From the NCBI RefSeq assembly GCF_003236295.1, contig NZ_POTW01000036.1, forward strand, positions 1 through 55,348: a DNA stretch of 55,348 nt, given 5' to 3'. Source of the stretch: Jiangella anatolica. Its GTDB lineage: Bacteria > Actinomycetota > Actinomycetes > Jiangellales > Jiangellaceae. Made by a program: the position numbers and the translations under genes. The number at the start of each line of letters is the position of its first letter. The first letter of the stretch is position 1. Below are positions 1 to 35,349 of this stretch, one piece after another. Under the pieces are notes generated by a model. The model did not search any database, was not told the DNA's origin, and worked only from the letters and a program-made list of their open reading frames with translations.

Positions 1-210
1 CACCCGGCCGACCAGGAAGCCCTCCGCGACCAGTCGCTCGTACGCCGTCGCGACCGTCCCCCGCGACACCGACAGCGTCCGGGCCAGCTCCCGCGTCGGC
101 GGCAGCCGGTCGCCGGGACGCAGCCGCCCGTCGCGGACGCCGTCGCGCAGCGACCGGTAGATCCGCGCGCTCAGTTCGCCGGAGCCGTCGAGGCTGACAT
201 GGAACTCCAC
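1..210 (-). CDS. MocR/PdxR-type GntR regulator, N-terminal fragment
   Basis: The reverse strand encodes the first 70 residues of a winged-helix GntR domain. Seen: a conserved LRPGDRLPPTRELARTLSVS helix-turn-helix core followed by RGTVATAYERLVAEGFL, typical of MocR/PdxR regulators, whose C-terminal aminotransferase-like domain would lie outside the window. The start is taken as GTG at 210 because the reading frame has no ATG near the domain start. It is divergent from the AhpD-like gene at 279, an arrangement common for MocR regulators and their targets, so it probably controls that gene. The PdxR/MocR assignment rests on the HTH and the context only, because the diagnostic C-terminal domain is missing. 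Confidence 0.8.
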   Translation of the reverse strand, partial: MEFHVSLDGSGELSARIYRSLRDGVRDGRLRPGDRLPPTRELARTLSVSRGTVATAYERLVAEGFLVGRV

Positions 211-10312: not shown

Positions 10313-10347
10313 CGGACGCCCCGGGGACCGCAGCCCCGGGGCGTCCG
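10313..10347. terminator. bidirectional terminator hairpin
   Basis: CGGACGCCCCGGGG (10313-10326) pairs perfectly with CCCCGGGGCGTCCG (10334-10347) across a 7-nt loop. It sits between the convergent cupredoxin and YihY genes, 12 bp after one stop and 5 bp from the other. There is no U-tract, as is common in actinobacteria. Confidence 0.8.
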
Positions 10348-13091: not shown

Positions 13092-14303
13092 CTATCGCAG
13101 CGGGCGGAACGCGGCCCGCACTTCCGCCGCGAACACCTCCGGCTCTTCCCAGGCCGCGAAGTGGCCGCCCCGCTCGGCTACGCCGAAGTAGTCGAGGGTG
13201 GGGTAGGACTGCTCGGCCCAGCTGCGCGGCGTCCGCCAGATCTCGCCGGGGAAGGTGCTGAAGCCCACCGGAACCCTGGGCGCAGGAAGCGGCGGCCTGC
13301 CCGCGGCGGGCGCGTCCGGTCCGTAGGCCTCCCAGTACGACCGGGCCGTGGATGCTCCGGTGCCGGTCAGCCAGTAGGCCGTGATGTTGTCGAGAATGTG
13401 GTCACGGGTCAGGTTGCCCGAGGGCTCACCGTCGACGAACGCGCTGGCGATCTTGTAGTAGGCGTCGGTGTCGTGGTCGATCATCCAGGCGGCGAGCGCG
13501 GCCGGCGAGTCCAGGAGCGCGTAGCCGATCGTCTCCGGCCGGGTCGCCATCTCCACGAAGTAGCCGTTCCCGGTGGTCTGGAAGACCTTGATCGCGGCGA
13601 GCGCCGCGCGTTCCTCCTCGGTGTCGCTCGGAAGCGACGCCGGGTCGTTGAGCGCCGGCACGAGCAGGTTGGTGTGGATACCGACCAGCCCCTGCGGTCC
13701 CAGCCGTCCGATCGCGTCGGTCACGCCGGCGCCGACGTCACCACCCTGCGCAACGTACCGGTCGTAGCCGAGCCGGCGCATCAGCTCGGCCCACGCCTGG
13801 GCGGTACGCACGAGGTCCCACCCGACCTCGGCCGGCTCCGCGGAGAAGCCGTAGCCGGGCAGGGACGGCAGCACGAGGTGGAACGCATCGGTGGCGGCGC
13901 CACCGTGCGCGGCCGGGTCGGTGAGCGGTCCGACGGAGTCCAGCATCTCGATGATCGAGCCCGGCCAGCCGTGCGTCATGATCAGCGGCAACGCGTCCGC
14001 GTGCTCGGACCTGACGTGGACGAAGTGGATGTTCACGCCGTCGATCTCGGTGGTGAACTGCGGCAGCGCGTTCAGCCGGGACTGCACCCGCCCCAGGTCG
14101 TACTCTCCCTTCCAGTACCGGCGCAGCGCCCGCATCGTGTCCAGTTGCACACCCTGGGAGCGGTCGCCGACGAGTTCCCGGGTCGGCCAGCGCGTCGTCG
14201 CCAGACGGCGGCGCAGGTCGTCGAGCGCTTCGTCGCGGAAGTGCACGGTGAACGGCCGGATCGCCTGGACGGTGTGCTGCTCGATCGTCGTCATGTCATT
14301 CAC
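13092..14303 (-). CDS. epoxide hydrolase-like alpha/beta hydrolase (cytoplasmic paralogue)
   Basis: A 403-residue epoxide-hydrolase-family enzyme without a signal peptide. Seen: the N-terminal EHN domain (FTVHFRDEALDDLRRRLA), HGWPGS (111-116), nucleophile Asp189 in QGGDVG, and catalytic His in GGHFAAWEEP. It is closely similar along its whole length to the exported neighbour, indicating a local duplication followed by gain or loss of the Tat signal. GGAG lies 6-7 bp upstream of ATG. It is divergent from the LAL regulator gene, which is the obvious candidate controller. Confidence 0.92.
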   Translation of the reverse strand: MNDMTTIEQHTVQAIRPFTVHFRDEALDDLRRRLATTRWPTRELVGDRSQGVQLDTMRALRRYWKGEYDLGRVQSRLNALPQFTTEIDGVNIHFVHVRSEHADALPLIMTHGWPGSIIEMLDSVGPLTDPAAHGGAATDAFHLVLPSLPGYGFSAEPAEVGWDLVRTAQAWAELMRRLGYDRYVAQGGDVGAGVTDAIGRLGPQGLVGIHTNLLVPALNDPASLPSDTEEERAALAAIKVFQTTGNGYFVEMATRPETIGYALLDSPAALAAWMIDHDTDAYYKIASAFVDGEPSGNLTRDHILDNITAYWLTGTGASTARSYWEAYGPDAPAAGRPPLPAPRVPVGFSTFPGEIWRTPRSWAEQSYPTLDYFGVAERGGHFAAWEEPEVFAAEVRAAFRPLR

Positions 14304-14371
14304 AGCTCCTTCGGTCGAATCGGACGCTCAGCAGCCTGCCGATGCCGGGTGCGGCTCGCCCCCGTGAAACT

Positions 14372-14389
14372 CCCGGGTCGACACCCGGG
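14372..14389. promoter_or_regulatory. palindrome CCCGGGT-CGAC-ACCCGGG
   Basis: A perfect 7-4-7 inverted repeat between the divergent epoxide hydrolase and LAL genes, about 70 bp from the hydrolase start. Its place suggests a shared operator. Confidence 0.5.
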
Positions 14390-14511
14390 CCGCTTTCGGC
14401 CCGATCGGTGGTCAAGGGGCTGGGGGCGGCCCTACGCTGAGGCAGGTCGGGTGAACACGGGTGGCTCTCGACGTGGCCGCCTGCAGGGCTCACCGCTGGG
14501 AGGGGCCGACG

Positions 14512-17304
14512 GTGGCGAGTACGGACGGGGCCCGGGGCCCGGCGGCGGAGCGTGGGCAGCGGGAGGCCCGGCTGCTCGGACGCCGGTCGGAACGTGCCGT
14601 GCTCGACCGTCTGCTGAGCGATGTCCGGGCCGGCGTGAGCCGGGTGCTCGTCGTGCGCGGCGAGGCCGGGGTCGGGAAGAGCGCGCTGCTCGGCTACGCG
14701 ACGGAGTCGGCGGCCGGCCTGCGCATCCTGCGCGCCGTCGGCGTGCAGTCGGAGATGGAGCTGGCCTTCGCCGCCCTGCACCAGTTGTGCGTGCCGCTGC
14801 TCGATCGCATGGACCAGCTTCCGGAGCCGCAGCGCCGCGCACTGGCGACGGTCTTCGGGCTCGCGCCGGGCCCGGCCCCCGATCGCTTCATGGTCGGCCT
14901 CGCCGTGCTCAGCCTGATCTCGGACCTCGCCGAGAACGAGCCGGCGCTGGTGGTGGTCGACGACGCGCAGTGGCTGGACACCGCGACCGCACAGACGCTG
15001 GGCTTCGTCGCCCGGCGGCTCGACGCCGACGCGGTCGGGGTGCTGTTCGGCGCCCGCGAGGTCGGTATCGAGCTGCACGGCCTGCCCGAGCTCGAGCTCG
15101 ACGGACTGCCGGACGACGAGGCGCGCGCACTGCTCGGATCGGCGGTCGGGTTCCTGCTCGACGAGCCGATCCGCGATCGGCTGGTGGCCGAGACCGGCGG
15201 CAATCCGCTGGCCCTGCTGGAACTGCCCCGCGGGCTCACCGCGACGCAGCTCGCCGGCGGGTTCGGTCTGCACGGCGGTCAGGGCCTGCCCGGGCGGATC
15301 GAGCAGAGCTTCATCCGCCAGGCCGACGCGTTGCCGGCGCCGACCCGGCAGCTGCTGCTCGTCGCCGCGGCCGAGCCGGTCGGCGATCCCGTGCTGGTCC
15401 GGCGCGCCGCCGACCAGCTCGGGATCGAGACGGCCTTCGCGGAGATCGACGGCCTGCTGAGCCTGGGCGAGCGGGTCACGTTCCGCCATCCCCTCGTCCG
15501 GTCGGCCTTGTACGGGTCGGCCTCCGCGGCGGAGCGACGCGCGGCGCACCTGGCCCTGGCGGAGGCGACGGACTCGTCCTCCGACCCCGACCGGCGCGCG
15601 TGGCATCTCGCGGCGGCCGCCATCGGGCCGGACGAGGACGTCGCCATCGAGCTCGAGCGATCCGCCGACCGGGCCCAGGCCAGGGGCGGCTTCGCGGCGG
15701 CCGCGGCCTTCTGGCAACGCGCGGTCGCGTTGACCCGCAACCCGGCGCGCCGCACCGATCGCGCGCTGGCCGGTGCGCAGGCCAGTCTCCAGGCCGGCGC
15801 GTTCCGGACCGCCCTGGCGCTGCTCGCGACCGCCGAGGCCGGCACGCTGGACGCGCTCGGCCGCGCCCGGGTCGATCAGCTCCGCGCGGAGGCCGCGTTT
15901 GCACAGCAACGCGGCCGCGACGCGCCGGGCCTGCTGCTCCGCGCGGCGCAGACGTTCGAGTCGCTCGACGTGCGCCTCGCCAGGGACACCTACCTGGACG
16001 CCTGGAGCGCGGCGCTCTTCGCGGGCCGGCTGGCGGGCGCGGTCGGGTTGCGTGAGGTCTCCCGCGCGGCAGCGACGGCGCCGCGGCCGGACACCGCGCC
16101 ACGGGCCTCCGACGTGCTCCTCGACGGACTGTCCCTCGTGATCGCCGGAGAGCGGGATCGCGCGGTGCCGTTGCTCACCCGGGCCGCGACCGCCTTCGGC
16201 GGACCGGACATCACCGTCGAGGAGGTGCTGCGCTGGGGCTGGCTCGCCACCGCCGCGGCCGCCACCGCCTGGGACTTCGAGTCCTGCGTGGCCACCGCCA
16301 CCCGGCAGGTCGAGATCGCTCGTGGCGCCGGCGCGCTCGCCGTGCTCGCCGTCGGCGTCAACGTCCTCGGACAGGTGGTCGCCCTGGCGGGCGACTTCGC
16401 CGAGGCAAGCTCGCTGCGCGCCGAGGCCGACGCGGTGCGGGAGGCCACCGGCACGCACGTCCTGCCGTACGGCGCGCTGGTGCTGTCCGCCCTCCGCGGC
16501 CGGGCCGACCATGCCTTCCCGTTGGTCGAGGACACCATCGCCAGAGCGACGGCCGAGGGTCAGGGCACTGCGGCGCAGTACGCGCGCTGGGCGAAGGCGG
16601 TGATCCTGAACGCTCTCGGCCGCCACGACGAGGCGTTGCTCTGGGCCACGTCGGCCGGCGAGGACACGCCGGAGCTGTTCGTCTCCTCCTGGGCGTTGAG
16701 CGAGCTGGTCGAGGCGGCCGCAAGGAGCGGACGGCCGCGCGAGGCCGCGGCCGCGCTGGCACGACTGCAGGAGAAGACCGCGAACACCGACGAGCTCTGG
16801 GGCCGCGGCTTGGAGGCCCGCGCGCGGGCCCTCGTGCACGAGGGCGACGACGCCGAACGCGCCTACGGCCAGGCGATCGAGCTGCTCGCCTCCACCCGGC
16901 TGCGCCCCGACCTGGCTCGCGCCCACCTGCTGTACGGCGAATGGCTTCGCCGGCAGAGCCGCCGAGGCGACGCACGGACGCAACTGCGCACGGCCTACGA
17001 CATGTTCGCCACGATCGGCATGGAGGCCTTCGCCGACCGCGCCCGCCGGGAGTTGCAGGCGACCGGTGAGACCGTTCGCCGACGCGCGGACGCATCGTCG
17101 GCGCGCGAGGAGCTGACCCCGCAGGAACGCCAGATCGCCCTCCTGGTCCGCGACGGCCTCTCCAACCCGGAGGTGGGCGCGCGGCTGTTCCTCAGCCCGC
17201 GCACGGTCGAGTGGCACCTTCGCAAGATCTTCGACAAGCTCTCCATCAGCTCACGCCGGCAGCTGCGCGATGCCCTGCCCGCCGCTGAGGCCGCGACCCG
17301 CTAA
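14512..17304 (+). CDS. LAL-type LuxR regulator with AAA ATPase domain
   Basis: About 930 residues. GTG 14512 is preferred because GGGAGGGG sits 7 nt upstream; an in-frame GTG at 14461 would add 17 residues without a good RBS. Seen: Walker A GEAGVGKSALL near residue 50, Walker B-like PALVVVDDAQWLD, a long TPR-like helical middle, and a C-terminal LuxR helix-turn-helix (LTPQERQIALLVRDGLSNPE ... RTVEWHLRKIFDKL). LAL proteins are large ATP-dependent activators, often of secondary or catabolic gene sets. It is flanked by epoxide hydrolases (divergent) and an SDR gene (convergent, overlapping by 4 nt). Confidence 0.93.
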   Translation: MASTDGARGPAAERGQREARLLGRRSERAVLDRLLSDVRAGVSRVLVVRGEAGVGKSALLGYATESAAGLRILRAVGVQSEMELAFAALHQLCVPLLDRMDQLPEPQRRALATVFGLAPGPAPDRFMVGLAVLSLISDLAENEPALVVVDDAQWLDTATAQTLGFVARRLDADAVGVLFGAREVGIELHGLPELELDGLPDDEARALLGSAVGFLLDEPIRDRLVAETGGNPLALLELPRGLTATQLAGGFGLHGGQGLPGRIEQSFIRQADALPAPTRQLLLVAAAEPVGDPVLVRRAADQLGIETAFAEIDGLLSLGERVTFRHPLVRSALYGSASAAERRAAHLALAEATDSSSDPDRRAWHLAAAAIGPDEDVAIELERSADRAQARGGFAAAAAFWQRAVALTRNPARRTDRALAGAQASLQAGAFRTALALLATAEAGTLDALGRARVDQLRAEAAFAQQRGRDAPGLLLRAAQTFESLDVRLARDTYLDAWSAALFAGRLAGAVGLREVSRAAATAPRPDTAPRASDVLLDGLSLVIAGERDRAVPLLTRAATAFGGPDITVEEVLRWGWLATAAAATAWDFESCVATATRQVEIARGAGALAVLAVGVNVLGQVVALAGDFAEASSLRAEADAVREATGTHVLPYGALVLSALRGRADHAFPLVEDTIARATAEGQGTAAQYARWAKAVILNALGRHDEALLWATSAGEDTPELFVSSWALSELVEAAARSGRPREAAAALARLQEKTANTDELWGRGLEARARALVHEGDDAERAYGQAIELLASTRLRPDLARAHLLYGEWLRRQSRRGDARTQLRTAYDMFATIGMEAFADRARRELQATGETVRRRADASSAREELTPQERQIALLVRDGLSNPEVGARLFLSPRTVEWHLRKIFDKLSISSRRQLRDALPAAEAATR

Positions 17305-18062
17305 TCCCGCAGCAGCTGCTGACCGCCGTCCACGTCGTACGTCGCGCCGGTCAGCGCGCTGTTCGTCATCAGCTGGACGACGAGCGCGGCGACGTCCTCC
17401 GGGCCGACCACGCGCCGGATCGGCAGCGTCGCCCGAAGCTCGGTCCGGCGCTCCTCCAGCCGATCACCCAGCAGACGTGCGGAGAGCGGGGTGTCGACGA
17501 ACCCGGCCGCGACCGTGTTGACGCGGATCGGGGCGAGCTCGAGCGCGGCGTTGGCGGCGATCGCCGACAGCGCGACAGTGGCGATCGCGGCCATGCTCAG
17601 ACCGACTCCGGGACGCCGCGCGCCGGTTCCGCTGATCAAGGTCAGCGAACCGCCCGGCCGGACCCGTCCGATGCACCACCGGGCGATGCGCAGCGAGCCG
17701 ATCAGATGCTCGTCGACGTAGGCCTGTGCGCGGTCGAAGTCGAGGTCGGCGATCGGTGCGTAGAACGGCCCGCCGCCACTCACCAGCACGTGATCGATCG
17801 GCGCGGGCAGACCGGCGAAGAACCTCTCGACGGCCGCCGGGTCGCCCAGGTCCAGCATGTCCACCGTCTCCGCGCCCACGTCCCCGGCGGCAGCGTCGAG
17901 TCGCTCGCGGTTCCGGCCGCCGAGAACCAGCCGGGCGCCGGCAGCGGCGGCCTGCCGCGCGGTCTCCAGCCCGATCCCCGAACTGCCGCCGATCACGACG
18001 ACGACCTGTCCGGTCAGGCTGCCATGGGACTGCACCGTGGTCGGAGTGGTCGGTTCGGTCAT
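17301..18062 (-). CDS. SDR-family protein lacking the catalytic Tyr and Lys
   Basis: 253 residues with the Rossmann cofactor motif GGSSGIG (25-31), SGGG at 95-98 in place of NNAG, and the usual C-terminal YDVDGGQQL. Ser144 of the active site is present, but the positions of the YxxxK pair hold Met157 and Ala161. Classic SDR oxidoreduction is therefore doubtful; a binding, regulatory or altered-chemistry role is possible. It overlaps the upstream MFS gene by ATGA, so it is translationally coupled, and it overlaps the stop of the LAL gene by 4 nt. Confidence 0.85.
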   Translation of the reverse strand: MTEPTTPTTVQSHGSLTGQVVVVIGGSSGIGLETARQAAAAGARLVLGGRNRERLDAAAGDVGAETVDMLDLGDPAAVERFFAGLPAPIDHVLVSGGGPFYAPIADLDFDRAQAYVDEHLIGSLRIARWCIGRVRPGGSLTLISGTGARRPGVGLSMAAIATVALSAIAANAALELAPIRVNTVAAGFVDTPLSARLLGDRLEERRTELRATLPIRRVVGPEDVAALVVQLMTNSALTGATYDVDGGQQLLRD

Positions 18063-19564
18063 GCTGCTCTCCTGTTCGAGTCGGGTGACACCGGGACGGC
18101 GCAGCCGTGCACGCGTGGAGTCGCCGGCAACCGGGTCACCGGTGGGCGGCCGCGCGCGACGAACAGCGCCGTGATCGCGGCTGCCACGACGCTGACCGCC
18201 GCCAGCACGAGCATCGCCGTCTGGTACCTGTCCGCCAGCGGCCGGGTGAGGTCGCCGGAGCCGCCCGCGCCGAGCAGGGCGGGAACGAGCGCGATCAGCA
18301 CTACTCCCCCGACCCGCGACGCGGCGTCGTTGATCGCAGACGCCTCACCGAGATCGGCGTCGTCCACGGCCGCGAGCACGCCTGCCGTGAGCGGCGCGAC
18401 CGTCAGGCCGATGCCGAGACCCCACAGCAGCGCACCGGGCAGGATCGCCTGCACGTAGCCGTCACCCGGCTGCGCGGCCGACAACCACGCGAAGCCGCCG
18501 GCCACCAGCAGGATGCCGGCCGTCATCGGCCAGCGGATGCCGACCCTCGCCACCAGGCCACCGACCAGCGGCGAGACGATCAGGAAGACCGCCGACTCCG
18601 GGATCAGGGCAGCGCCCGCCGCGGTGGCGCTGTAGCCCAGCCGCAGCTGGCACTGCAGAACGACGAGGTAGCCGGCGGCCGAGAGCGCGCCGTAGAAGAG
18701 GACGGTCGCGGCGTTGATCGCGAGGAACTGCCGGATCCGGAACAACGCCGTCCGCAGCATCGGCGCGGGCCGCCGCCGCTCCACCGGAACCAGTCCGGCG
18801 AGACAGACGACCCCGACCGCCGCCGAGACCACGACCGCCGCACTGCTCCAGCCGGCGGACGGTCCCTCGGTCAGCGCGTAGATCAGCCCGCCCAGCCCCA
18901 GGACGGCCAGCAGAGCGCCGGCGAGGTCGAGCGACAGCGGCCGCCGGGCCCGGCCGGCCTCGGGCACACTGCGAAGGATCCAGCCGGCGACCAGGATCAA
19001 CGGGACGTTCAGCAGGAACACGTACCGCCAGGAGCCGTGGTCGACCAGCCATCCGCCCGCATAGGGACCGAGCGTCGTGCCCAGCGTCGCCAGACCAGCC
19101 CAGACGCCGATCCCCCGGGCCCGGTCCACCGGTCGCAACGTCCCGTTGAGCAGGGCCAAGCTGCTCGGCACGACCAGCGCGCCGCCGGCCCCTTGGACCA
19201 CGCGCGCGGCGATCAGCGTGGCGACGTCCGGAGCGGCAGCACAGCACAGGGACGCGACGAGCATGACGAGGAGCCCGGCGGCGAGGATGCGCCGCCAGCC
19301 GAAGTGGTCGGCCAGCGCTCCGGCGAGCAGCAGCAGGGCCGCGACGGTGATCAGGTAGCCGGTCAGCACCCACTGCACCTCGCCCACACCGGCGTTCAGG
19401 TCACGGCCGATGGCTGGAACGGCGACGTTGACCATATAGGCGTCGATGAAGCCGACCATCGACGCGAGCACCGTCGCCGCGATCAGGGCGCCACCGGCTC
19501 CGCTGCGCAGCTCGACCGGCCCGGCCAGGCCGTACGAGGCATCCCGCACATCTCCCGCAGTCAT
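18059..19564 (-). CDS. MFS drug/metabolite exporter, DHA2 (EmrB/QacA) type
   Basis: A 501-residue transporter with 14 predicted spans. Seen: motif A-like GALADHFGWRRIL, motif C-region (GWLVDHGSWRYVFLLNVPL) and MVNVAVPAIGRDLNAGVGEV near the N-terminus, all typical of proton-coupled DHA2 exporters. It is first in a two-gene operon with the SDR gene (ATGA overlap) and divergent from a flavoprotein gene. The double palindrome in the shared promoter suggests induction of export together with detoxifying enzymes. The RBS is weak. Confidence 0.92.
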   Translation of the reverse strand: MTAGDVRDASYGLAGPVELRSGAGGALIAATVLASMVGFIDAYMVNVAVPAIGRDLNAGVGEVQWVLTGYLITVAALLLLAGALADHFGWRRILAAGLLVMLVASLCCAAAPDVATLIAARVVQGAGGALVVPSSLALLNGTLRPVDRARGIGVWAGLATLGTTLGPYAGGWLVDHGSWRYVFLLNVPLILVAGWILRSVPEAGRARRPLSLDLAGALLAVLGLGGLIYALTEGPSAGWSSAAVVVSAAVGVVCLAGLVPVERRRPAPMLRTALFRIRQFLAINAATVLFYGALSAAGYLVVLQCQLRLGYSATAAGAALIPESAVFLIVSPLVGGLVARVGIRWPMTAGILLVAGGFAWLSAAQPGDGYVQAILPGALLWGLGIGLTVAPLTAGVLAAVDDADLGEASAINDAASRVGGVVLIALVPALLGAGGSGDLTRPLADRYQTAMLVLAAVSVVAAAITALFVARGRPPVTRLPATPRVHGCAVPVSPDSNRRAA

Positions 19565-19600
19565 GCCGCCAGCATCGGGCGAACCGTCCCGCGCCGGACC

Positions 19601-19641
19601 CCGGGAAGGTCCCTGGTGGGCCGAACCAGGGACCTTCCCTG
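19601..19641. promoter_or_regulatory. double palindromic operator in divergent promoter
   Basis: Two sites form one larger symmetric structure: GGGAAGGTCCCTGGT (19603-19617) is the exact reverse complement of 19625-19639. Each arm is itself a palindrome. The right is CCAGGGA-CCT-TCCCTGG (perfect 7-3-7) and the left is CCGGGA-AGG-TCCCTGG with one mismatch. It lies 37 bp from the MFS start and 64 bp from the flavoprotein start. It looks like two adjacent dimer-binding sites controlling both directions. The regulator is unknown; the nearby LAL protein is one candidate. Confidence 0.75.
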
Positions 19642-19704
19642 GGTCGGCCGGCCGCCGGCCGGGCCAGACTCGCCGTGTGGGTCTCGTCGAAGGGAGCGCC
19701 TGAC

Positions 19705-21087
19705 ATGGACAGGACGGAGTACGACGTCATCGTCGTCGGAGCCGGTGCTCCGGGCGAGCATTGCGCCGCCGCGCTGGCCAAGGGCGGCGCCCGCGTCGCC
19801 GTCGTCGAACGCGAGCTGCTCGGCGGCGAGTGCTCCTACTGGGCCTGCATCCCGTCGAAGACGTTGCTGCGCCCCGGCGAGGCGCTCGCCGCCGCCCTCG
19901 ACGCTCCGGGTGCGCGCGAAGCCGTGACCGGGGCCCTGGACCCCCAGGGCGTACTGGGCTGGCGCGACTTCATGGTGTCCGGCTACGACGACTCCGGCCA
20001 GGTGTCGTGGGCCAAGGACGCCGGCATCGAGGTGCTGCGCGGCCACGGCCGGCTCGCGGGGCCGCACGCGGTCGACGTGGACGACCGGACGTACACCGCG
20101 GACCAGGTCGTCATCGCGACCGGCGCCGATCCGGTGATCCCGCCGGTTCCCGGCCTCCGAGAGCTGCCGGGCATCTGGACGAACCGCGACGTCACCGGCC
20201 TGGCCGACGTGCCCGATCGCCTGCTCGTGCTCGGTGGCGGGGCGACCGGGGTCGAGATGAGCCAGGCGCTGGCCCGAATGGGCGCGGCTGTGACGCTCAT
20301 CGAGCGCAACGAACACCTGCTGCCGCGTGAGCCACGGGCGGTGGGCGAGGCGGTCGCGACGGCGCTCGTCGCGGACCACGTGGACGTGCGGGTCGGCACC
20401 GGCGCGGAACACGTGCGGCTCGAGGACTCGTCCTACGTGATCGACCTCGGCGACGGCACCGCGGTCCGGGGCGACCGCGTCCTGGTCGCGACCGGCCGAC
20501 GGCCCCGCGTCGACGGCATCGGCCTGGAGACCGTCGGGATCGCCGCGAACCCGCGAGGCATCGAGGTCGACGCCAGACTGTCGGCCGGGCCGGGCCTATG
20601 GGCGGTCGGCGACGTCACCGGCCTCTGGCAGCTCACACACGTCGGCGAGTACCAGGGCCGCGTCGTGGCGAGCAACATCCTCGGCAGACCGCGCACGGCG
20701 GACTACGAGGCGGTGCCGCGCGTCGTCTATTGCGACCCGCAGGCCGCCTCGGTCGGCGCCGCGGATGGGCCGTTCGTGAGCACCGTCCAGTTGTCCGGGG
20801 TCGCGCGGACGGCGACGTACCTGCGCTCGTACGACACCCGGCCGGGGTTCCTCACCGTCGTGTCGGACGGGACGATGATCACCGGCGCCTACGCGGTCGG
20901 CCCGGAGGCCGGCGAGTGGCTCCAGCAGGCCACCCTGGCGATCCGTGCGAAGGTGCCGTTGGAGGTCCTGCTCGACGTCATCCAGCCGTTCCCGACGTTC
21001 TCGGAGGCGTTCCTCCATGTGCTGCGGGACCTCGACGCGCGCGTGCGCGGCTCAGACCAGACGGCAACGAACACCGTTCATCTCTAG
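19705..21087 (+). CDS. disulfide-reductase-like FAD/NAD(P) oxidoreductase
   Basis: A 460-residue class-I-like pyridine nucleotide-disulfide oxidoreductase. ATG 19705 follows AGGGAG. Seen: FAD motif GAGAPG (12-17), redox pair C43-SYWA-C48 in GGECSYWACIPSK, NAD(P) motif GGGATG in the middle, the second FAD contact WAVGDVTG, and a dimerisation domain. At the C-terminus the usual HPT..E active-site motif reads FPTFSE, so the proton-relay His is Phe. Thiol redox activity is plausible but altered. It is the first gene of a unit with the VOC gene, divergent from the MFS operon. Confidence 0.9.
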   Translation: MDRTEYDVIVVGAGAPGEHCAAALAKGGARVAVVERELLGGECSYWACIPSKTLLRPGEALAAALDAPGAREAVTGALDPQGVLGWRDFMVSGYDDSGQVSWAKDAGIEVLRGHGRLAGPHAVDVDDRTYTADQVVIATGADPVIPPVPGLRELPGIWTNRDVTGLADVPDRLLVLGGGATGVEMSQALARMGAAVTLIERNEHLLPREPRAVGEAVATALVADHVDVRVGTGAEHVRLEDSSYVIDLGDGTAVRGDRVLVATGRRPRVDGIGLETVGIAANPRGIEVDARLSAGPGLWAVGDVTGLWQLTHVGEYQGRVVASNILGRPRTADYEAVPRVVYCDPQAASVGAADGPFVSTVQLSGVARTATYLRSYDTRPGFLTVVSDGTMITGAYAVGPEAGEWLQQATLAIRAKVPLEVLLDVIQPFPTFSEAFLHVLRDLDARVRGSDQTATNTVHL

Positions 21088-21096
21088 GAGGAAGTC

Positions 21097-21774
21097 ATGA
21101 GCACCACCGACGTAGACACCAACGAGTCCGGCGCAGCGCCCCAGGCCTCGGTCGACCTGAAGTTCGAGGCCGTCGTCATCCCGGTCGCGGACGCGGATCG
21201 GTCGAAGGCGTTCTACACAGGCCTCGGCTGGCGACTCGACGCCGACTACGCGTTCGACAACGGCTTCCGCGTCGTCCAGCTCACGCCGCCGGGCTCGCCC
21301 GCCTCGGTCCAGTTCGGCACGAACATCACGTCCGCCCAGCCCGGTACGGCGCAGGGGCTGTACCTCGTCGTCTCCGATGTGGAGGCCGCACGGGCCGACC
21401 TGACCGAGCGCGGCGCCGAGGTCAGCGAGGTCTTCCATCCCGGGGCGCCCGGCGCCCAGTTCGAGGCCGGCGACACGAGCGCGCGTGTCTCCGGCCCGGC
21501 CGACGAGCGGTCCAGCTACAGCTCCTTCGCCACCTTCAGCGATCCCGACGGCAACACCTGGCTGCTTCAGGAGGTCACCACGCGGCTCCCCGGCCGGGTC
21601 GACCCCGCGGAGGCGACCTACACCTCCGTCGAGGATCTCGAGGCCGCGCTCCAGCGTGCCGCGGCCGCCCACGGCGAGCACGAGGCCCGCACGGGCCAGG
21701 CCGACGAGAACTGGCCGGCCTGGTACGCGAGCTACATGATCGCCGAACGCACCGGCACCGAGCTTCCGCAGTAG
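21097..21774 (+). CDS. VOC-family (glyoxalase/bleomycin resistance-like) protein
   Basis: 225 residues, with a strong AGGAGGA RBS 9 bp after the flavoprotein stop. Seen: one VOC module (KFEAVVIPVADADRSKAFY ... FSDPDGNTWLLQEV) plus a C-terminal helical extension (EDLEAALQRAAAAHGEHEAR) found in some actinobacterial members. VOC proteins bind divalent metals and act as isomerases, dioxygenases or drug-binding proteins. The operon with a flavoprotein and divergence from an exporter suggest a detoxification role. The substrate is unknown. Confidence 0.9.
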   Translation: MSTTDVDTNESGAAPQASVDLKFEAVVIPVADADRSKAFYTGLGWRLDADYAFDNGFRVVQLTPPGSPASVQFGTNITSAQPGTAQGLYLVVSDVEAARADLTERGAEVSEVFHPGAPGAQFEAGDTSARVSGPADERSSYSSFATFSDPDGNTWLLQEVTTRLPGRVDPAEATYTSVEDLEAALQRAAAAHGEHEARTGQADENWPAWYASYMIAERTGTELPQ

Positions 21775-35306: not shown

Positions 35307-35349
35307 GCGGTGGGGGTTGCCGGCCGAGCGCGCCGGCAACCCCCACCGC
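35307..35349 (-). terminator. strong terminator of the esterase gene
   Basis: A perfect 18-bp stem (35307-35324 with 35332-35349) and 7-nt loop, 7 bp after the esterase stop on the reverse strand. It also separates this gene from the hydrolase promoter. Confidence 0.85.

What the first reader, a model, noticed from the sequence alone, without database searches (positions are those of the whole stretch)
19601..19641. Nested double palindrome controlling divergent exporter and flavoprotein operons
Two 17-bp sites (consensus CCAGGGA-N3-TCCCTGG) are themselves arranged as a perfect 15-bp inverted repeat with a 7-nt spacer. This symmetry of symmetric sites suggests two cooperating dimers regulating MFS-SDR and flavoprotein-VOC together, a probable detoxification switch.
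Basis: partly seen in the sequence, partly recalled or inferred. Interest (0 to 1): 0.58.

Follow-up and report, generated by a model that had tools for sequence, protein, structure and literature searches.

The report
Shared activator box of detoxification genes
The mirrored DNA pattern is real and is best read as two back-to-back copies of a directional switch sequence, with a third copy nearby, through which a neighbouring large regulator protein probably turns on a set of export and detoxification genes.

Summary
The sequence observation holds: two 17-bp sites (19600-19616, one mismatch; 19626-19642, exact) form a perfect 15-bp inverted repeat with a 7-nt spacer between divergent MFS-SDR and flavoprotein-VOC operons. 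But the symmetry is not the functional unit. In relatives the element is directional, A-CCAGKGNNTNYCMCKGG-NGCGA, 18 bp upstream of a -10-like hexamer: activator geometry. The window holds three boxes, one per promoter; the third (14356-14377, epoxide hydrolase) was missed. All lie around one 947-aa LAL regulator gene (AAA_16 + LuxR/GerE HTH). In other genomes boxes face glyoxalase, flavoprotein, MFS, epoxide-hydrolase, SDR and AhpC genes and cluster near LAL genes: outside seed loci 15 of 101 matches lie within 3 kb of a LAL, 1.16 expected. LALs with an RTVEWH recognition helix have a box nearby in 51 of 66 cases, others in 3 of 41; this is weaker in loci chosen without regard to the box. Best reading: the LAL activates a compact detoxification regulon, much as PAS-LuxR proteins do, from a different box. 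Cooperation between two dimers is unsupported, since spacing is 25-28 bp in some loci and 43-132 bp in others. LAL binding, activation and inducer are inferred. My literature searches found no record of this box.

The parts
19600..19616 (-). box 1, reading CCAGGGACCTTCCCGGG on the minus strand; promoter of MFS-SDR
   Evidence: PWM score 11.8, the weakest of the three; its tail (GTCCG) departs from NGCGA, and the directional pattern at 1 mismatch does not recover it
19626..19642 (+). box 2, CCAGGGACCTTCCCTGG; promoter of flavoprotein-VOC
   Evidence: PWM score 19.4; tail GTCGG departs from NGCGA
   Evidence: PWM score 25.7, best in the window
19571..19576 (-). -10-like GATGCT at box offset +40..45; predicted start site falls on the MFS ATG (leaderless)
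   Evidence: offset matches the aligned set
19665..19670 (+). -10-like CAGACT at box offset +39..44 for flavoprotein-VOC
14333..14338 (-). -10-like CAGGCT at box offset +39..44 for the epoxide hydrolase
14461..17304 (+). LAL regulator, 947 aa (AAA_16 37-189, GerE HTH 884-935, recognition helix SPRTVEWHLRK); candidate protein that binds the boxes
13092..14299 (-). epoxide hydrolase (EHN domain); ATG at 14299 or 14294 looks a better start than the GTG at 14303
17301..18062 (-). SDR oxidoreductase, second gene of the MFS operon (overlaps the MFS gene and the LAL 3' end by 4 bp)
18059..19564 (-). DHA2/EmrB-like MFS exporter (TIGR00711 224 bits, just under its cut-off of 230)
19705..21087 (+). pyridine nucleotide-disulphide oxidoreductase (MerA/Lpd-like flavoprotein, below the cut-offs of the named NCBIfam models listed)
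21097..21774 (+). VOC (glyoxalase/bleomycin-resistance fold) protein

Best explanation
The feature is a pair of oppositely oriented copies of a directional activator box, one for each of two divergent promoters; a third copy serves the epoxide hydrolase. The box (A-CCAGKGNNTNYCMCKGG-NGCGA) sits directly upstream of and into the -35 region, centred near -44, with 18 bp to a weak -10. The neighbouring LAL protein (ATPase + LuxR-type HTH) most likely binds it as a dimer on the 7-3-7 dyad when its ligand is present and recruits RNA polymerase. That would switch on the exporter, SDR, flavoprotein, VOC protein and epoxide hydrolase together as a detoxification response. Shown by computation: boxes, geometry, conservation, gene content, co-location with LAL genes, correlation with the recognition helix. 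Inferred: that LAL binds the box, activation rather than repression, the start sites, the inducer, the detoxification role.
For: 47 dereplicated directional boxes show conserved columns that the search pattern left free: A at -1 (33 of 47), T at +8 (32 of 47), and a -10-like element with A at +41 (30 of 47) and T at +45 (27 of 47); p is 1e-11 and 3e-15 against local A and T frequencies. The same columns recur in 37 boxes of other loci (A40 19, A41 17, T44 20, T45 14 of 37). The PWM at 17 or more gives 134 hits on 4.08 million scanned bases (both strands, training loci and some overlapping loci included) against 0 in reversed sequence. Window hits at 10 or more are only at the three box places. 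Divergent pairs 30, convergent 2, the latter reverse readings of one DNA. FAD-anchored loci of 20 kb or more (60 of 80): box and RTVEWH-LAL 32, box only 8, LAL only 3, neither 17 (p 2.5e-6). Pattern matches outside seed loci within 3 kb of a LAL: 15 of 101, expected 1.16. LALs with a pattern match within 3 kb: 21 of 79 at 47% identity or more, 0 of 58 below; without seed loci 14 of 71 against 0 of 58. LAL-anchored stretches, chosen without regard to the box: 16 PWM hits (10 or more) in 11 of 29 stretches, reversed control 1 in 1; distant LALs 1 of 11, control 0. Helix RTVEWH: box of 14 or more within 4.5 kb at 51 of 66 LALs, other helices 3 of 41.
Against: No binding or expression data. In an unselected class sample the exact directional pattern is not enriched: 9 places in 178 genomes against 7 for the backwards pattern, and 1 of the 9 lies within 3 kb of a listed LAL. 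8 of 40 box loci have no RTVEWH-type LAL in the stretch held, although all 8 genomes carry LAL homologues elsewhere. Six LALs of the strict helix class have no box scoring 10. The helix class was chosen after seeing the table and relatedness was not corrected for; in LAL-anchored stretches, counted per stretch, it is 4 of 7 against 7 of 29 (p 0.11) at score 10 and 2 of 7 against 0 of 29 (p 0.03) at 14. The PWM was trained on FAD-anchored loci, so one search is partly circular. The window's two central boxes lack the full tail and its -10s sit at +39 or +40. Repression from this position is not excluded. 29 loci of flavoprotein homologues in relatives (39-62% identity, about 3-4.4 kb each) have no PWM hit of 8 or more, three 61-62% orthologues among them.
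Confidence: 0.75

Rival explanations
1. The nested palindrome is one composite operator on which two dimers of a regulator cooperate to switch both operons together.
For: Both sites lie between the divergent promoters; a 25-28 bp spacing recurs in 12 of the 30 listed pairs (two of the 12, L070 and L160, are the same DNA) from several genera.
Against: The other 18 divergent pairs are 43-132 bp apart; many boxes are single; each box keeps its own orientation and -10 distance; the window's third box stands alone; 26 bp is about 2.5 turns, which would put two dimers on opposite faces (general knowledge).
Confidence: 0.12
2. The boxes are operators of a repressor (LAL or another protein) that blocks RNA polymerase at -35.
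For: The box abuts or overlaps the -35 region. One LAL, SCO6993, acts as a repressor (PMC9628970, passages read).
Against: A strict orientation and a fixed distance to a weak -10 suggest an activator; PAS-LuxR boxes lie in the -35 region of the regulated promoters (PMC9774167 passages); TpdR, a LAL that controls a catabolic operon, is an activator (PMC6099782 passages).
Confidence: 0.13
3. Another transcription factor, not the LAL, reads the box; LAL genes merely travel with the same detoxification genes.
For: 8 of 40 box loci have no RTVEWH-type LAL in the stretch held; a MarR-like frame (L042, L048) and a MerR-like one (L052) were noticed upstream by eye, without a family search.
Against: In 16 box loci picked by hand, the 25 most frequent Pfam families of the other 102 proteins hold no DNA-binding regulator family with more than 4 members (TetR 4, sigma factors 2); boxes track the LAL recognition helix.
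Confidence: 0.11
4. The inverted repeat is a transcriptional hairpin or terminator, or chance.
For: A perfect 15-nt inverted repeat can fold.
Against: It lies upstream of both divergent genes, not downstream; conservation follows the box, not the arms; simulations give 0.025 expected.
Confidence: 0.01

Closest known systems
PAS-LuxR (PimM family) boxes CTVGGGAWWTCCCBAG
   Same: LuxR-type regulators; near-palindrome with GGGA...TCCC half-sites; located in the -35 region of regulated promoters (PMC9774167 passages)
   Different: Here 7-3-7 (17 bp) instead of 16 bp with a two-base centre, flanks CC/GG instead of CT/AG, a directional GCGA tail, and a LAL beside detoxification genes rather than a PAS-LuxR in an antibiotic cluster
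TpdR and the tpdABC promoter of Rhodococcus jostii TMP1
   Same: LAL activator of a small inducible operon for a foreign compound (PMC6099782 passages)
   Different: Proposed TpdR site is a 15-nt direct repeat TnnAAnnGCGGAnTC, not this dyad
MalT of enteric bacteria
   Same: Prototype LAL: N-terminal ATPase, C-terminal LuxR HTH (as stated in PMC6099782); one search gives a weak match of the window LAL to the MalT HTH region
   Different: MalT boxes are arranged as direct repeats (as quoted in PMC6099782)
SCO6993 of Streptomyces coelicolor
   Same: LAL with footprints on short palindromes (PMC9628970 passages)
   Different: A repressor; the authors could not give a consensus; sequences differ

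Membership tests
LAL (large ATP-binding LuxR) regulators | N-terminal ATPase domain and C-terminal LuxR HTH in a protein of about 900 aa | tested here: met
   AAA_16 1.3e-17 at 37-189, GerE 1.2e-12 at 884-935, 947 aa
LAL (large ATP-binding LuxR) regulators | ATP- and ligand-dependent control of transcription | not testable with these tools
   needs biochemistry
PAS-LuxR (PimM) regulon | box CTVGGGAWWTCCCBAG, 16 bp, two-base centre | tested here: not met
   window and relatives have a three-base centre, 17 bp, CC/GG flanks
PAS-LuxR (PimM) regulon | PAS sensor domain in the regulator | tested here: not met
   no PAS match in the neighbouring regulator at E 0.001
LuxR-type activator site next to -35 | dyad at a fixed distance from a -10 element | tested here: met
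   positions +41 A and +45 T in 47 sites, repeated in 37 other sites; the window's own -10s sit at +39 or +40
LuxR-type activator site next to -35 | binding by the HTH protein | not testable with these tools
   only correlation with the recognition helix

The most novel reading that the evidence does not exclude
An expanded actinobacterial LAL subfamily (3 to 21 LAL homologues per genome in the 15 genomes searched for the box) reads a common directional box through a shared RTVEWH recognition helix. Each member would run its own compact, locus-bound regulon of electrophile or xenobiotic detoxification genes. Sister LALs with other helices would read other boxes, so LAL-box pairs could be decoded from sequence and used as a library of orthogonal small-molecule sensors.
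Probability: 0.45. Interest if true: 0.6.

Novelty: new variant of a known kind. Interest (0 to 1): 0.46.

Why it matters
LAL regulators are numerous in actinobacteria, yet the few DNA sites met in the papers read here are unlike each other; for SCO6993 the authors write that a consensus could not be predicted. A predicted box with a defined promoter geometry lets a regulon be read from sequence, ties orphan detoxification genes to a sensor, and makes binding, activation and inducer screens directly testable.

Tried and rejected
Bare 17-mer as a regulon finder: rejected. Of 393 genomes of the class 7 have one perfect copy, this one included, against 3 for the backwards control; the six other loci (3 kb each) show no homologue of the window proteins.

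Composite operator with cooperating dimers: rejected as the main model because spacing varies and single boxes are common.

Class-wide search with the exact directional pattern: no enrichment (9 places against 7 control) and 1 of 9 beside a LAL (one search scored at most 4 LAL candidates per genome). A LAL-anchored test with the PWM followed.

Flavoprotein homologues in relatives: 29 loci (L006-L034) give no PWM hit of 8 or more. For L006-L008 I read stretches at one end of the match that, as the loci turned out to be oriented, were the gene's 3' side, so those readings carry no weight. Relatives were then taken from the named genome collection (capped at the best 80).

Papers: searches with CCAGGGA or CCAGGG plus LuxR terms, LAL with epoxide hydrolase, glyoxalase or binding site, and Kribbella with LuxR gave no listing whose title or abstract start describes this box. 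Listings were cut: 20 of 46, 15 of 74. Four listed papers that hold CCAGGG(A) were looked into, and the string is part of a primer in each; two others (PMC8546723, PMC9306550) and one (PMC1766931) were not. Papers outside the open library were not searched.

Full report
What is there. Between the divergent MFS gene (minus, ATG 19564) and the flavoprotein gene (plus, ATG 19705) lie CCCGGGAAGGTCCCTGG (19600-19616) and CCAGGGACCTTCCCTGG (19626-19642). They form a perfect inverted repeat of 15 nt with a 7-nt spacer. Markov simulations expect 0.025 such repeats per window (40 simulations). The genome has no other match to the 17-mer at 0 or 1 mismatch.

Is the 17-mer used widely? No. Exact copies occur in 7 of 393 genomes of the class, this one included, against 3 for the backwards control. 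The six other loci have no homologue of the six window proteins within their 3 kb. The bare palindrome is rare, and elsewhere it looks like chance.

Relatives. A scan of named genomes with the flavoprotein gave 80 loci (the best 80 kept) at 59-84% identity. In loci of Kribbella, Actinomadura, Geodermatophilus, Streptomyces and Paractinoplanes the 17-mer or a one-mismatch copy stands near flavoprotein, VOC, MFS or epoxide-hydrolase genes. In Lentzea, Amycolatopsis and Kutzneria loci a related but asymmetric form lies upstream of the VOC gene, for example ACCAGGGTGTTCCACGGGTTCGA. Read in one orientation, they fit A-CCAGKGNNTNYCMCKGG-NGCGA.

Geometry. From 63 pattern matches, 47 remained after dereplication; two of the palindromic sites are counted in both orientations. 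Columns that the pattern left free are conserved: A before the box (33 of 47), T at +8 (32 of 47), A at +41 (30 of 47) and T at +45 (27 of 47). Against local base frequencies the last two have p of 1e-11 and 3e-15. They mark a -10-like hexamer 18 bp after the CGA. The same columns appear in 37 boxes from loci not used for the alignment, less sharply. Of 132 boxes, 104 have an assigned gene downstream; the median distance from box to start codon is 77 nt, and 22 of the 104 lie 46-58 nt upstream, consistent with leaderless transcripts. In the window the promoters read GATGCT at +40 for MFS, CAGACT at +39 for the flavoprotein and CAGGCT at +39 for the epoxide hydrolase. This is the geometry of an activator site next to -35; placing it at about -44 assumes a standard distance from -10 to the start.

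Three boxes, one locus. With the directional pattern at 1 mismatch the 7.0-Mb genome has four matches: the epoxide-hydrolase box, site 2 read on both strands, and one in another contig that I take for chance; site 1 is not recovered. The PWM at 10 or more finds only the three box places in the window: 25.7 (epoxide hydrolase), 19.4 (flavoprotein), 11.8 (MFS), plus the reverse reading of site 2. All lie between 14.3 and 19.7 kb, around the LAL gene.

Pairs. Over the window and 140 loci there are 30 divergent pairs within 140 bp and 2 convergent ones, which are reverse readings of one DNA. Spacing is 25-28 bp in 12 pairs (L070 and L160 are the same DNA) and 43-132 bp in 18. A fixed composite operator is not supported.

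Gene content. Of 101 proteins first downstream of a box, 28 match Glyoxalase, 15 Pyr_redox_2, 10 MFS_1, 7 EHN, 5 SDR, 5 AhpC-TSA, 4 DJ-1/PfpI, 3 DUF4331 and 3 SnoaL_2. Most of these loci were fetched through the flavoprotein, so its share and that of its neighbours are inflated. The set suggests defence against electrophiles or oxidants; the substrate is unknown. The window flavoprotein keeps the CxxxxC pair but has Phe where Lpd has the His of HPTLSE, and the aligned mercuric reductase has no His there either.

Who reads the box? (a) In 60 of the 80 FAD-anchored loci (those of 20 kb or more): box with RTVEWH-type LAL 32, box only 8, LAL only 3, neither 17 (partly circular, as the PWM comes from these loci). 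The eight box-only genomes carry LAL homologues elsewhere. (b) In 15 genomes, chosen because they hold a FAD locus, the relaxed pattern at 1 mismatch has 141 matches against 69 for the control (summed). Within 3 kb of a LAL lie 9 of 40 exact and 24 of 99 one-mismatch places, expected 0.43 and 1.05. Without the seed loci it is 15 of 101, expected 1.16; one of the 15 lies just outside the edge of the L070 stretch. (c) LALs of at least 47% identity have a match within 3 kb in 21 of 79 cases, more distant ones in 0 of 58; without seed loci 14 of 71 against 0 of 58. (d) In LAL-anchored stretches, chosen without regard to the box, 29 stretches of closer LALs hold 16 PWM hits (10 or more) in 11 stretches, against 1 in reversed sequence; 11 stretches of distant LALs hold 1 against 0. 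(e) By recognition helix: with RTVEWH[LM][RKG], 50 of 62 LALs have a box of 14 or more within 4.5 kb, others 4 of 45; with RTVEWH alone, 51 of 66 against 3 of 41. In the LAL-anchored set it is 3 of 8 against 0 of 35 for the strict class and 3 of 10 against 0 of 33 for RTVEWH; counted per stretch, 2 of 7 against 0 of 29 (p 0.03), and at score 10, 4 of 7 against 7 of 29 (p 0.11). The class was defined after seeing the data, and the sequences are related. (f) In 16 box loci picked by hand from those with a LAL, the other 102 proteins show 4 TetR, 5 ANTAR and 2 sigma-factor matches among the 25 most frequent families, so no other DNA-binding regulator recurs at a comparable rate.

Results against. 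The exact directional pattern in 178 unselected genomes gives 9 places against 7 for the control, 1 of them within 3 kb of a listed LAL. Six LALs of the strict helix class have no box scoring 10. 29 loci of flavoprotein homologues in relatives have no PWM hit of 8 or more. The two central window boxes lack the full tail. No binding or expression evidence exists here.

Comparison with what is known. PAS-LuxR boxes (CTVGGGAWWTCCCBAG, in the -35 region; PMC9774167 passages) resemble this one but have a two-base centre and another regulator type. TpdR (PMC6099782 passages) shows that a LAL can activate an operon for a foreign compound, but its proposed site is a direct repeat. SCO6993 (PMC9628970 passages) is a LAL with palindromic footprints and no consensus. 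No listing describes this box by title or abstract start; some listings were cut. Passages only were seen of PMC3466318 and PMC3282765 and of four papers in which CCAGGG is part of a primer.

Verdict. The regulatory reading is right in outline, but the symmetric double-dimer model is replaced by oriented single boxes, one per promoter, of a LAL-linked detoxification regulon that includes the epoxide hydrolase. It is a new variant of a known kind.

Noticed in passing
window 35307-35349 and 10313-10347: Perfect inverted repeats with 18-nt and 14-nt arms and 7-nt loops; probably terminators.
   Followed up: no
window 17301-17304: The LAL and SDR genes converge and overlap by 4 bp, so transcription of one runs into the other; this could couple or interfere.
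   Followed up: no
window 19705-21087: The flavoprotein keeps the redox CxxxxC but has FPTFSE where Lpd has HPTLSE, i.e. Phe for the His; the aligned mercuric reductase also lacks the His.
   Followed up: partly
window 13-22 kb: Flavoprotein relatives of 80-84% identity are in Kribbella of the named collection, while the same-genus genomes searched have at most 48%, which suggests that the locus moved horizontally.
   Followed up: no
L106 8465-9230: A box-like CCAGGGTATCCACGGGCGCGA upstream of VOC, one base shorter in the centre, near an RTVEWH LAL that otherwise has no box.
   Followed up: no
16 box loci surveyed: GAF-ANTAR proteins (5 matches) and AhpC/thioredoxin-like proteins (3 each) recur near the boxes.
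   Followed up: no
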